Assembly (NCBI RefSeq): GCF_029960785.1
Contig: NZ_JASBQE010000026.1
Span: forward strand, 1 to 64,000
Length of the DNA: 64,000 bases
DNA from: Polyangium sp. 15x6
Lineage (GTDB): Bacteria; Myxococcota_A; Polyangia; Polyangiales; Polyangiaceae
Direction of reading: 5' to 3'
Part shown: piece after piece, positions 2,931 through 6,823 of the stretch
Layout: each line of letters begins with the position of its first letter
Numbering within the stretch: the stretch's first letter is position 1
Translations under genes and position numbers: made by a program
Notes under the pieces: generated by a model
Databases searched by the model: none
What the model was told of the DNA's origin: nothing
Seen by the model: only the letters and a program-made list of their open reading frames with translations

Positions 2931-4460
2931 ATGACCGCCAAGGAAACGATCGCCTCTGCGACGAACGGCGAGACCCACGCGGCCCCGTCGTCGCCTGCGC
3001 AGCGAGCTGCGCTCGAGTTCGGCAAGGCGTGGACCTACGCGCCCGCGCCCGAGGCCGCCGATCACGTGCGGATCGATCCGCGTTACGAGCTCTTCATCGG
3101 CGGCAAATGGGTCGCGCCGTCGTCGGGCAAGTACTTCGACACCGTGAGCCCCTCGACCGAGCAGAAGCTCTCCGAGGTCGCCGAGGCCAACGAGCGCGAC
3201 GTCGATCTCGCCGTGAAGGCCGCGCGGAATGGCTACGAAAAATACTGGTCGAAGCTCTCCGGGATCGAGCGCGGCAAGTACATCTACCGCATCGCGCGGG
3301 TGATCCAGGAGAAGGCGCGCGAGCTCGCCATCGTGGAGACGATGGACGGCGGCAAGCCCATCAAGGAGTCGCGCGACGTCGATCTGCCGCTCGTGGCGGC
3401 GCACTTCTTCTATTACGCGGGCTGGGCCGACAAGCTCGCGTACGCGTTCCCGGGTCGCTCGCCGCGCCCGCTCGGCGTGGCGGGGCAGGTGATCCCCTGG
3501 AACTTCCCGCTGCTCATGGCCGCGTGGAAGCTCGCGCCCGCGCTCGCCGCGGGCAACACGTGCGTGCTCAAGCCCGCGGAGACGACGCCGCTCACGGCGC
3601 TCTTGCTCGCGAAGATCATCGAGGAGTGTGATCTGCCGCCGGGCGTCGTGAACATCGTGACGGGCGCGGGCGCGACGGGCGCCGCGGTCGTCGCGCATCC
3701 GGACGTGGACAAGGTCGCGTTCACGGGATCGACGGACGTGGGCAAGCGGATCCAGAAGGCCCTGTCCGGCACGAAGAAGAAGCTCACGCTCGAGCTCGGC
3801 GGCAAAGCGGCGAACATCGTGTTCGCGGACGCGCCGCTCGATCAGGCGGTCGAAGGGATCATCTCGGGCATCTACTTCAACCAGGGGCACGTCTGCTGCG
3901 CGGGCTCGCGCCTGCTCGTGGAGGAAGGCGCGTTCGAGCCGCTCCTGCAGAAGCTCCGCGATCGCATGCAGACGCTGCGCGTGGGGGATCCGCTCGACAA
4001 GAACACCGACGTCGGCGCGATCAACTCGAAGATGCAGCTCGACAAGATCCGCGAGCTCGTCGAGGCGGGTGAGCGCGAAGGCGCCGAGCGGTTCTCGACG
4101 CCGTGCGAGCTGCCGACACGTGGTTACTGGTTCGCGCCGACGCTCTTCACGGGCGTGTCGCAGTCGCACCGCATCGCGCGCGAGGAGATCTTCGGGCCGG
4201 TGCTCGCGGTGATGACCTTCCGCACGCCCGAGGAGGCGATCGAGAAGGCGAACAACACGATGTACGGCCTCAGCGCCGGCGTCTGGACGGACAAGGGCTC
4301 GAAGAGCTTCTGGGTCTCGCAGCGCCTGCGCGCCGGGGTCGTCTGGGCGAACACGTACAACAAGTTCGATCCGAGCTCTCCGTTCGGCGGTTACAAGGAG
4401 AGCGGCTTCGGCCGCGAGGGCGGCCGGCAAGGGCTCTTGCCGTATCTCGAGGTGGACTGA
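2931..4460 (+). CDS. Aldehyde dehydrogenase, catalytic member of an ALDH16-like pair
   Basis: This is a full-length NAD(P)-dependent aldehyde dehydrogenase of 509 residues. The cofactor segment GQVIPWNFPLLM and the FTGSTDVGK motif are intact. The general base lies in LELGGKAANIVF (Glu288) and the catalytic nucleophile in GHVCCAGSR (Cys322). The C-terminal oligomerisation segment FGGYKESGFGREGG is present. It begins nine bases after deoC and its stop overlaps the start of the next ALDH gene (ATGA), so the three are almost certainly co-transcribed. The natural substrate is probably acetaldehyde from DeoC, which is inference from context. The following gene encodes a truncated homologue, which recalls the two-module ALDH16 family. 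Confidence 0.93.
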   Translation: MTAKETIASATNGETHAAPSSPAQRAALEFGKAWTYAPAPEAADHVRIDPRYELFIGGKWVAPSSGKYFDTVSPSTEQKLSEVAEANERDVDLAVKAARNGYEKYWSKLSGIERGKYIYRIARVIQEKARELAIVETMDGGKPIKESRDVDLPLVAAHFFYYAGWADKLAYAFPGRSPRPLGVAGQVIPWNFPLLMAAWKLAPALAAGNTCVLKPAETTPLTALLLAKIIEECDLPPGVVNIVTGAGATGAAVVAHPDVDKVAFTGSTDVGKRIQKALSGTKKKLTLELGGKAANIVFADAPLDQAVEGIISGIYFNQGHVCCAGSRLLVEEGAFEPLLQKLRDRMQTLRVGDPLDKNTDVGAINSKMQLDKIRELVEAGEREGAERFSTPCELPTRGYWFAPTLFTGVSQSHRIAREEIFGPVLAVMTFRTPEEAIEKANNTMYGLSAGVWTDKGSKSFWVSQRLRAGVVWANTYNKFDPSSPFGGYKESGFGREGGRQGLLPYLEVD

Positions 4461-5410
4461 TGGCGCGCGCGAAGGACAAGGACACGGCGGGGGCGCCTGC
4501 CCGCACGGACGAGCGCGAGAATGGGTTCGTCCCGCCCGCCCGTTTGTCGGTACGCAAGGCGTACAAAATGCTGGTCGGCGGGCAGTTCGTTCGATCGGAG
4601 TCGGGCAGGTACATCCAGGTGGCGGATCCGATGAGCCTCGGTGGAACGAAAGAGAACGTGCCGTGGGCGTCCCGCAAGGACGTGCGCGACGCGGTCGTCG
4701 TGGCGCGCGGCGCGTGGGAGGGCTGGTCCGGCCGGACCGCGTACAACCGCGGGCAGATCCTCTACCGGCTCGCCGAGATGCTCGAAGCGCGGCAAGGCGA
4801 GCTCGCGCGCTCTCTCGAGCGCGGCGGGCTCGAAGCATCACGCGCGGCGACGGAGACGGCGGTCGCGATCGATCGCGTGGTCTCGTACGCGGGCTGGGCG
4901 GACAAGTACCAGAGCTTGTTCTCGAGCCTGAATCCCGTTGCCGGGCCGCACTTCAACTTCACCGTGCCCGAGTCGATGGGTGTGGTCGGCGTCGTGGCGC
5001 CGGCGCGTCCGGCGCTCCTCGGGCTGCTCGGCGCGGTCCTGCCGATCATCACGGCGGGCAACACGGCCATCGTGCTCGCGAGCGAGGAGGATCCGCGCAC
5101 GGCGCTCGTGCTCGGCGAGGCGCTCGCGACGAGTGATCTGCCGGGCGGCGTGATCAACGTGCTCACGGGCCGCGCGGCCGAGCTGCTCCCGCACCTCGCG
5201 AAGCACATGGAGGTGGCGGCGCTCGATCTGCACGGCGTGACGCCGGAGCTCGCGCGCAAGGCGGAGGAGGCGGCCATCGTGAACGTGAAGCGCGTGCGGA
5301 CGCGATCGATCGACGAGGCGGCCTGGTTCGACGCGGACGGCGCGACGAGCCCGCGCTGGATCGAGCGGTTCGTCGAGATGAAGACGATCTGGCACCCCTC
5401 CGGGGCGTGA
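4460..5410 (+). CDS. Truncated aldehyde dehydrogenase homologue without catalytic domain (ALDH16 second-module-like)
   Basis: The ATG at 4460 overlaps the TGA of the preceding ALDH. The 316 residues align with the N-terminal cofactor-binding part of an ALDH: MLVGGQFVRSESGR, the RGQILYRLAEML helix, YAGWADKYQ, and MGVVGVVAPARPALLGLL in place of the usual PWNFP. The chain ends shortly after VINVLTGRAAELLPHLAKH. It lacks the GSTxxG motif, the ELGGK glutamate and the Cys nucleophile, so it should be inactive as an oxidoreductase. Because the reading frame is intact and translationally coupled, it is probably a structural partner of the first ALDH, as in the pseudo-catalytic second module of ALDH16. 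It could instead be a decaying paralogue. Confidence 0.85.
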   Translation: MARAKDKDTAGAPARTDERENGFVPPARLSVRKAYKMLVGGQFVRSESGRYIQVADPMSLGGTKENVPWASRKDVRDAVVVARGAWEGWSGRTAYNRGQILYRLAEMLEARQGELARSLERGGLEASRAATETAVAIDRVVSYAGWADKYQSLFSSLNPVAGPHFNFTVPESMGVVGVVAPARPALLGLLGAVLPIITAGNTAIVLASEEDPRTALVLGEALATSDLPGGVINVLTGRAAELLPHLAKHMEVAALDLHGVTPELARKAEEAAIVNVKRVRTRSIDEAAWFDADGATSPRWIERFVEMKTIWHPSGA

Positions 5411-5443: not shown

Positions 5444-5800
5444 GCTGCGCCGACGCGAGCCGAAGGTTTCCGCGTGCGCGGCGTGTCTTGCGTGCATGCG
5501 AGACATGCGGGGCCATGTGCGCGGGGGGGCTTGCGCCGGCGCAAGACACCCCGCGCACTCGTGACGACCCCTCTTGAACGGGCGCAAGAGCATTCGAACA
5601 CACCGTTTCGGCGTGCTCGCGCCCGCGCAAGCGCCTCCGTGACATGTGTTTGGAGTGTCTTGCATCGGCGCAAGGCACCCCAAACAGTCGCGAGTGCACG
5701 GCTTGCGCGGGTGCAAGGGACGTCGCGACGCACGAGGGGTCGATTTGCGTGCGTGCAAGACACGCCTTGCAGAAGGCGTGGGGTTTTGCGTCGTGGATGG
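5444..5800. repeat. Tandem array of 16-bp palindromes at a 43-bp period
   Basis: Eight 16-bp units related to the palindrome CTTGCGCCGGCGCAAG start at 5444, 5487, 5530, 5573, 5616, 5659, 5702 and 5744, a spacing of 43,43,43,43,43,43,42. A weak ninth unit may start near 5785. The unit at 5530-5545 is a perfect palindrome. Units differ at several positions, and the 27-bp segments between them share no obvious sequence. Flanks often extend the dyad, for example GTGT before and ACAC after. The array fills the 480-bp gap between the ALDH pair and fmt; no convincing gene is present. It resembles a CRISPR in layout, but the repeat is too short and degenerate and no cas gene is nearby. Confidence 0.8.
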
Positions 5801-5890
5801 AGCCAGGGATCGCGTCTTTGATCTCTCCCGTCCCGAGTTCCAGCCCCTCATCGACTTCCTCCGCCGCCTCTGAAGCGCTACACCCCGCCC

Positions 5891-6823
5891 GTGCGCGCCC
5901 TCTTCTTCGGCACCCCCGCCATCTCCGTCCCCGCGCTCGACGCGCTCCACGCGATCGCCGAGATCCCGCTCGTCGTCTGCCAGCCCGATCGCCCTGCCGG
6001 TCGCGGCCTCGAGCTCCGCGCGCCGCCCGTGAAGCAGCGTGCCCTGGAGCTCGGCCTGCGCGTCGAGCAACCGCTCAAGGTCAAAACACCGGACTTCGCC
6101 CGCCTCATCGCGGAGACGAACGCCGACGTCGCGCTCGTCATCGCGTACGGCCGCATCTTGCCGAAGGCCGTGCTCGAAGCGCCTCGCCGCGGCTGCATGA
6201 ACCTCCACGCCTCCATCCTGCCCAAGTACCGCGGCGCCGCTCCGATCACGTGGGCGATCGTGAACGGCGAGCGCGAGACGGGCGTCTGCCTCATGCAGAT
6301 GGACGAGGGCATGGACACGGGCCCGGTCTTCTCCACGCACCGGATCCCGATCGGGGAGGACATGACCGCCGACGAGCTCTACGTCGAACTCGGCGATCTC
6401 GCGGCGCGTGTCGTGCGCGAGGATCTTTTCCGCGCGGTATCCGGAGACCTCGTCGCGCGGGAACAGGATCACGCGGCGGCGACGATGGCGCCGATGCTCG
6501 AGAAGGAGCACGGCCGCATCGATTGGTCGAAGCCTGCGCGCGCGGTGCACGATCACGTCCGCGGCATGACCTCGTGGCCCGGCGCGTTCACGACGTGCGC
6601 AGGCAAAGGGCTGAAGGTGCTCGCAACGAAGGTGGCCACCGAGCAAGGTGTGCGCGGCGCGCCCGGCGAGATCACCGCCGCGGACAAATGGGGCGCGGAG
6701 ATCGCGTGTGGCGCGGGCTCGATCACGCTCGTGCGCGGGCAACTCGAAGGACGGAAGCCTCTGTCCGCGCAGGAGCTCGTCGCCGGTCGTGCCCTCGCGA
6801 AGGGCATGACCCTCGGCGCCTAG
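5891..6823 (+). CDS. fmt: Methionyl-tRNA formyltransferase
   Basis: Fmt formylates the amino group of initiator Met-tRNA using 10-formyl-tetrahydrofolate. The 310-residue length is normal. The N-terminal formyltransferase domain begins RALFFGTPAISVPALDAL. The folate/catalytic region reads NLHASILPKYRGAAPI with the active Asn and His, followed by GVCLMQMDEGMDTGPV carrying the conserved Asp. The C-terminal domain contains IDWSKPARAVHDHVRGM and PGAFT. The start is a GTG. There is no def gene next to it, unlike the common def-fmt pair. Its TAG stop overlaps the stop codon of the convergent gene at 6820 by three bases. Confidence 0.96.
   Translation: MRALFFGTPAISVPALDALHAIAEIPLVVCQPDRPAGRGLELRAPPVKQRALELGLRVEQPLKVKTPDFARLIAETNADVALVIAYGRILPKAVLEAPRRGCMNLHASILPKYRGAAPITWAIVNGERETGVCLMQMDEGMDTGPVFSTHRIPIGEDMTADELYVELGDLAARVVREDLFRAVSGDLVAREQDHAAATMAPMLEKEHGRIDWSKPARAVHDHVRGMTSWPGAFTTCAGKGLKVLATKVATEQGVRGAPGEITAADKWGAEIACGAGSITLVRGQLEGRKPLSAQELVAGRALAKGMTLGA

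What the first reader, a model, noticed from the sequence alone, without database searches (positions are those of the whole stretch)
5444..5800. Array of palindromes at a rigid 43-bp period
Eight 16-bp dyads related to CTTGCGCCGGCGCAAG start 43, 43, 43, 43, 43, 43 and 42 bp apart, while the 27-bp segments between them are unrelated. The period is about four helical turns, so all dyads face one side of the helix. The dyad is symmetric and the unit at 5530 is perfect. This suggests repeated binding of a dimeric protein, a tandem stem-loop RNA, or an eroded CRISPR-like array. It does not code for protein, since 43 is not a multiple of three.
Basis: partly seen in the sequence, partly recalled or inferred. 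Interest (0 to 1): 0.75.

Follow-up and report, generated by a model that had tools for sequence, protein, structure and literature searches.

The report
Chromosomal 43-bp dyad arrays in Polyangium
This soil bacterium and its sister species carry several chromosomal arrays in which a 16-bp mirror-symmetric DNA site recurs every 43 bp, laid out like the centromere of the F plasmid; the spacing and the sites persist across species while the DNA between them changes, so it looks like a docking lattice for an unidentified two-fold protein.

Summary
Window 5444-5759 holds eight 16-bp dyads (CTTGC-N6-GCAAG type; seven clear, one weak) at 43,43,43,43,43,43,42 bp; no shuffled window reached more than three in a row. 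It is one of 33 such arrays (271 dyads; 229 of 238 intervals exactly 43 bp) that I fetched from five of six Polyangium genomes, all intergenic. At the orthologous ALDH-fmt site of other species the TTGC/GCAA half-sites are about 90% conserved, the spacers only 48-68%; array size changes by whole 43-bp units. Left and right arms do not covary, which argues against stem-loop RNA or cruciform function. In one species the half-site has shifted (TTGC to TCGA) in all seven arrays. Further array families in the genus also have a 43-bp period, and a related genus has TTGC dyads at 42 bp. The closest known layout is F-plasmid sopC: twelve 43-bp repeats, each with a 16-bp inverted repeat bound by SopB. 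No second ParB shared by the array-bearing species was found, so it may work like sopC but is not shown to be one. Best reading: a DNA lattice for an unknown dimeric protein, all sites on one helical face. Main rival: a satellite without function. CRISPR-like origin is rejected.

The parts
5444..5459 (.). dyad 1 (weak): GCTGCGCCGACGCGAG
   Evidence: matches the left-end dyad of the orthologous arrays in G002 and G005
5487..5502 (.). dyad 2: CTTGCGTGCATGCGAG
5530..5545 (.). dyad 3: CTTGCGCCGGCGCAAG, perfect palindrome; symmetry extends over 5517-5558
   Evidence: (I4)
5573..5588 (.). dyad 4: CTTGAACGGGCGCAAG
5616..5631 (.). dyad 5: CTCGCGCCCGCGCAAG
5659..5674 (.). dyad 6: CTTGCATCGGCGCAAG; symmetry extends into both spacers
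5702..5717 (.). dyad 7: CTTGCGCGGGTGCAAG
5744..5759 (.). dyad 8: TTTGCGTGCGTGCAAG; this unit and the DNA just downstream are the best conserved end in G005, G002 and G003
4460..5410 (+). left neighbour: aldehyde-dehydrogenase-like gene, array starts 34 bp after it
   Evidence: homology to the preceding dehydrogenase reading frame
5799..5873 (+). remnant of the 3' end of a DUF3226 gene that is intact in G001 and G003
   Evidence: sequence comparison; Pfam PF11536 on the G003 copy
5891..6823 (+). right neighbour: methionyl-tRNA formyltransferase-like gene (fmt), used as synteny anchor
   Evidence: the name fmt rests on my reading of the sequence

Best explanation
The array is a DNA-level docking lattice: each 16-bp dyad (YTTGCRY-SS-RYGCAAR, two half-sites) binds one homodimer of a sequence-specific DNA-binding protein. 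The 43-bp period, about four helical turns, puts all dimers on one face of the duplex so that they can assemble into one nucleoprotein body, as SopB does on F-plasmid sopC. Several such arrays are scattered in intergenic DNA of each array-bearing Polyangium chromosome and evolve by gain and loss of whole 43-bp units while the sites are kept by selection. Shown: anatomy, spacing, conservation pattern, lack of arm covariation, intergenic placement. Inferred: a bound dimer, cooperative assembly, and a role in chromosome organisation, segregation or silencing. The protein is not identified.
For: Chance excluded. 33 arrays, 229/238 intervals of 43 and nine of 42. Orthologous ALDH-fmt arrays: TTGC/GCAA identity 0.89-0.93 against spacer 0.48-0.68. 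Small indels are rarer inside arrays than in flanks (6 per 274 substitutions against 19 per 326; Fisher P 0.04) and the large length changes are about 43 or 86 bases. Half-sites vary independently: about 50:50 A/G at the third base from the centre, yet arm complementarity equals that of shuffles (0.45 against 0.47; 81.4% against 80.9% paired), as expected for protein half-sites and not for a hairpin. Palindromicity has a secondary peak exactly at the half-period, 21.5 bp = two turns. In G001 the half-site TCGA makes up 39% of half-sites (at most about 4% elsewhere) and occurs in all seven arrays, some orthologous to TTGC arrays of other species: a concerted shift, as expected if sites follow one trans-acting factor. 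Perfect dyads outside arrays are near chance level. 33/33 arrays are intergenic with no promoter-like orientation bias (12 convergent, 15 codirectional, 5 divergent, 1 undetermined). Published precedent for exactly this geometry: F-plasmid parS, twelve 43-bp repeats with 16-bp inverted repeats bound by a ParB dimer (PMC6238139, PMC9178275).
Against: No binding protein is known. PF02195 finds one ParB common to all six genomes, including G004 which has almost no type-1 arrays, and canonical GTTTCACGTGAAAC parS sites exist elsewhere in G000 and G005. Presence is polymorphic: the fmt site is empty in G004 and array-free in G001, and G004 has only a two-dyad remnant of a type-1 array. The L055/L067/L073 locus shows little or no extra conservation of the cores. 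Concerted change could also come from gene conversion between arrays. Near-identical units in some arrays (L072, L182, L207) are what a plain tandem repeat does.
Confidence: 0.55

Rival explanations
1. Non-functional satellite DNA: 43-bp units multiply and are lost by slippage and unequal exchange, and exchange between arrays (gene conversion) spreads unit variants; the apparent conservation of the dyad is descent plus palindrome repair by template switching.
For: Some arrays are nearly homogeneous (within-array spacer identity up to 0.81). Copy number varies, arrays are lost at orthologous sites, and several sequence families share the 43-bp period. In G005 arrays lie in the terminus-proximal, typically accessory, part of the chromosome. 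L019 looks like a recombinant of the L060 and L061 loci.
Against: Cores at about 90% while orthologous spacers are at 48-68%; exact 27-bp spacer length although spacer sequence is nearly saturated at the window locus; half-site changes without arm covariation, the opposite of palindrome repair.
Confidence: 0.27
2. Selfish extragenic palindrome element (REP/BIME- or MITE-like) mobilised by a transposase encoded elsewhere.
For: Dispersed, intergenic, palindromic; paralogous arrays share unit order and spacers; empty and filled orthologous sites exist.
Against: No terminal inverted repeats or target duplications were noticed (not examined systematically); arrays persist at orthologous sites over the genus; REPs are usually single or paired units without a rigid long array; no adjacent transposase was recognised in the limited set of neighbours examined.
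Confidence: 0.1
3. Tandem stem-loop RNA (or single-stranded DNA hairpins): each dyad folds as a hairpin in a transcript.
For: The + strand folds more stably than shuffles (z -7.4) and so does the - strand (z -5.3); some units have extended symmetric arms.
Against: No compensatory change in the stem (177 units; 55 aligned triples); stable folding is automatic for any dyad array; no consistent orientation to neighbouring genes; no Rfam family.
Confidence: 0.06
4. Remnant of a CRISPR or another guide-RNA array.
For: Short partly palindromic repeats with differing 27-bp spacers.
Against: Spacers recur in the same order in paralogous arrays of one genome and across species; repeats are degenerate; the array has no match in plasmids or phages; no Cas gene recognised among examined neighbours.
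Confidence: 0.01

Closest known systems
F-plasmid centromere sopC / parS_F, bound by SopB (ParB_F)
   Same: 43-bp tandem period; one 16-bp inverted repeat per unit; about ten sites (PMC6238139, PMC9178275)
   Different: Chromosomal and dispersed in several loci, no adjacent parAB genes recognised, spacers divergent, different half-site (YTTGCRY), no second ParB shared by the array-bearing genomes
Non-coding prokaryotic satellite families (Leptospira interrogans 37/46 bp, Methanocella conradii 37 bp; PMC6749651)
   Same: Dispersed non-coding tandem repeats with a period that is not a multiple of three
   Different: Here the unit is a conserved dyad with divergent spacers, held over species, and several sequence families share one period
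REP/BIME palindromic repeats
   Same: Intergenic, dispersed, palindromic
   Different: Rigid 43-bp arrays of 7-11 dyads; membership not established
Chromosomal parS sites
   Same: 16-bp dyad bound by a dimer
   Different: Canonical parS (GTTTCACGTGAAAC) is present elsewhere in G000 and G005, single sites near the presumed origin
CRISPR arrays
   Same: Regularly spaced repeats with differing spacers
   Different: Degenerate dyads, spacers shared among arrays, no Cas genes recognised

Membership tests
sopC-type (type Ia) centromere | tandem units each carrying a dyad at constant spacing | tested here: met
   229/238 intervals 43 bp, 16-bp dyads
sopC-type (type Ia) centromere | cognate ParB-family protein encoded in the array-bearing genomes | tested here: not met
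   only one ParB_N protein common to all six genomes, also in nearly array-free G004; extra matches are not shared by the array-bearing species. A ParB without a recognisable PF02195 domain is not excluded
sopC-type (type Ia) centromere | adjacent parA/parB operon | tested here: inconclusive
   not recognised next to the arrays, but only some neighbours were scanned
sopC-type (type Ia) centromere | partition function | not testable with these tools
   needs a plasmid stabilisation assay
CRISPR array | near-identical repeats with unique spacers | tested here: not met
   repeats degenerate, spacers shared in order between arrays
Structured RNA / stem-loop array | compensatory base changes in the stem | tested here: not met
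Non-coding satellite | tandem repeat, non-coding, unit gain and loss | tested here: met
   length changes of about 43 or 86 bases, no overlapping gene
Non-coding satellite | no part of the unit under selection | tested here: inconclusive
   cores conserved over spacers at the fmt locus, little or not at the L055/L067/L073 locus
REP/BIME element | GTAG- or CGTC-type tag and a RAYT transposase in the genome | not tested

The most novel reading that the evidence does not exclude
Polyangiaceae chromosomes use a dispersed centromere-like or architectural system: one or more dimeric proteins unrelated to ParB read half-sites on a fixed helical lattice (43 bp in Polyangium, 42 bp in a related genus), and several sequence families of arrays share that lattice, with species-specific half-sites co-evolving with the protein.
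Probability: 0.25. Interest if true: 0.85.

Novelty: new variant of a known kind. Interest (0 to 1): 0.62.

Why it matters
A sopC-like geometry recurring many times on bacterial chromosomes, without an evident ParB partner, would point to an undescribed nucleoid-organising or segregation system in some of the largest bacterial genomes. The near-loss of these arrays in one sister species (G004) and the half-site shift in another (G001) make the search for the protein directly testable. Even if it is a satellite, non-coding satellite families with long units are rarely reported in prokaryotes (PMC6749651), and a period shared by several sequence families needs an explanation.

Tried and rejected
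Rfam at gathering threshold and at E 1: nothing credible. No tRNA. BLAST of the array against plasmids and phages: no match. GTDB-wide and viral pattern scans: in GTDB, Polyangium sp. 6x1 shows the 42-43-bp spacing as repeated chains; most other hits have scattered spacings (the L094 Bacteroidales contig with three similar intervals was not examined). A second ParB as binder: not found. The 238-aa orphan protein (p238) next to arrays at six loci (L019, L061, L063, L069, L077, L182) as binder: judged unlikely, because it belongs to a larger paralogous family found also in the nearly array-free G004, and it has no Pfam domain; its structure was not predicted. Protein coding: period not a multiple of three, no Pfam match. 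Literature searches for a Polyangium or myxobacterial 43-bp repeat and for the written motif found nothing relevant. Laying the whole genome for scripts was not possible.

Full report
Observation. The array is present as described. Eight dyads start at 5444, 5487, 5530, 5573, 5616, 5659, 5702 and 5744; the first is weak. A run of eight motif matches at 43+-1 bp is far outside 200 dinucleotide shuffles of the window (maximum three), while symmetry without the motif is not unusual. The array lies between an aldehyde-dehydrogenase-like gene (ends 5410) and a gene I read as fmt (starts 5891); no gene overlaps it.

A family in the genus. A spaced-dyad pattern and a three-dyad profile (R1) found the same arrays at other loci of this genome (C44, C84, C144, C273) and in four other Polyangium genomes (one of them matches contigs of Polyangium sp. 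6x1). The sixth, G004, the nearest sister by fmt identity, has only a two-dyad remnant of this type plus arrays of another type. I fetched 33 arrays with 271 dyads: 229 intervals of 43 bp and nine of 42. These counts come from a chain search that mildly penalises other spacings, so the exact share of 43 is slightly favoured. A control scan of reversed sequence (346 kb) gave no chain.

Orthologous site. Between the two anchor genes, G005 has nine dyads; G002 and G003 have the array plus an AAA_15 ATPase and a DUF3226-family gene (full-length in G003, apparently shortened in G002); G001 has the two genes without the array; G004 has 41 bp and nothing. The window keeps about the last 75 bp of the DUF3226 gene. 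G003 has a variant with 15-bp dyads. Length differences inside arrays are mainly about 43 or 86 bases, and small indels are fewer than in flanks (6 per 274 against 19 per 326 substitutions, Fisher P 0.04; the split into small and whole-unit events was made by hand). At the L055/L067/L073 locus the cores are little or no better kept than the spacers, so some arrays appear to decay.

DNA site or hairpin. The third base from the dyad centre is A or G about equally, and its partner T or C, yet complementary pairs are no commoner than after shuffling (0.45 against 0.47 at 168 units; similar after removing related units). A second test on 55 aligned triples gives 81.4% standard pairs against 80.9%. 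Only the central four bases covary clearly, where a hairpin cannot pair all of them; part of that may be the CG/GC bias of the genome. Moderate covariation at 9-10 bases from the centre weakens when related units are removed. In G001 most units of array L207 are asymmetric (CTTGC...TTCGAG), again against a stem. I conclude that half-sites are read independently, as by a two-fold protein. The low folding energies are what any dyad array gives.

Concerted change. In G001, TCGA half-sites make up 39% and occur in all seven arrays; in the other four genomes they are at most about 4%. Three of the G001 arrays (L207, L208, L209) are at sites that share flanks with arrays of other species. Either the sites follow a changed protein or the arrays exchange sequence.

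Beyond this array type. A search for a 15-bp variant found further array families at 43 bp in the genus (TTGCAACGCGTGCAA and others); the search pattern imposed the TTGC/GCAA letters and the period, so it does not show by itself that the period is general. A tandem-repeat run without any motif on 864 kb gave, among periods of 25-100 bp that are not multiples of three and have three or more copies, 40, 43, 43, 43, 58, 86 and 94; one of the 43s is the G005 fmt array. Most of that sample is G005 sequence, part of it taken at regions with known arrays, so the excess of 43 is suggestive only. In a genus of the same family (G036) TTGC dyads recur at 42 bp, in two arrays with a second dyad at the half-period. 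In type-1 arrays, too, the strongest secondary symmetry is at 21.5 bp.

Position on the chromosome. In G005 (two contigs), four canonical parS sites lie at 12.90 Mb. If that is the origin, all eight type-1 arrays lie more than 3.3 Mb away, out of 6.6 (P 0.004, post hoc). GC skew agrees only weakly, and accessory DNA tends to gather there, so I do not lean on this.

Mechanism. The geometry is that of F-plasmid sopC, where each 43-bp repeat holds a 16-bp inverted repeat bound by a SopB dimer (PMC6238139, PMC9178275). I infer a similar one-face assembly. Membership is not claimed: only one ParB is common to the six genomes, and canonical parS sites are there for it. Function, partner and transcription remain untested. 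A functionless satellite is the main rival and is not excluded.

Noticed in passing
window 5799-5873; G001, G002, G003 fmt loci (L147, L149, L150): Two-gene unit AAA_15 ATPase + DUF3226 between array and fmt in relatives; in the window only about the last 75 bp remain, and G002's second gene looks internally shortened.
   Followed up: partly
L019:6488-7192, L061:4383-5099, L063:6356-7072, L069:134-850, L077:4536-5252, L182:5749-6435: A 238-aa protein family without Pfam domain sits beside an array at six loci; G004 keeps only a short 3' remnant next to two leftover dyads.
   Followed up: partly
G005:C1:2.76, 2.90, 2.96, 4.56, 5.89, 7.05, 7.24, 7.52, 10.36 Mb; G004:C42:549459-549725: Other 43-bp array families (TTGCAACGCGTGCAA; TTGGAAGGGGCGCAA; TTGGCGCAGGTGCAA) in Polyangium genomes.
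   Followed up: partly
G036 loci L245:5893-6228, L247:5801-6052, L248:6027-6278: Arrays of TTGC dyads at period 42 in another genus of the family.
   Followed up: partly
L229:5568-5702 (G005 12.0 Mb): A 43-bp tandem repeat of unrelated sequence built from two 21-22-bp halves.
   Followed up: no
L094:5561-5786 (Bacteroidales MAG contig): Three similar dyad pairs about 85 bp apart matching the spaced TTGC pattern in a distant phylum; may be coincidence.
   Followed up: no
L019 against L060/L061: The L019 locus looks like a recombinant of two array loci that lie 11.5 kb apart in G005 and G003, suggesting that arrays recombine with each other.
   Followed up: partly
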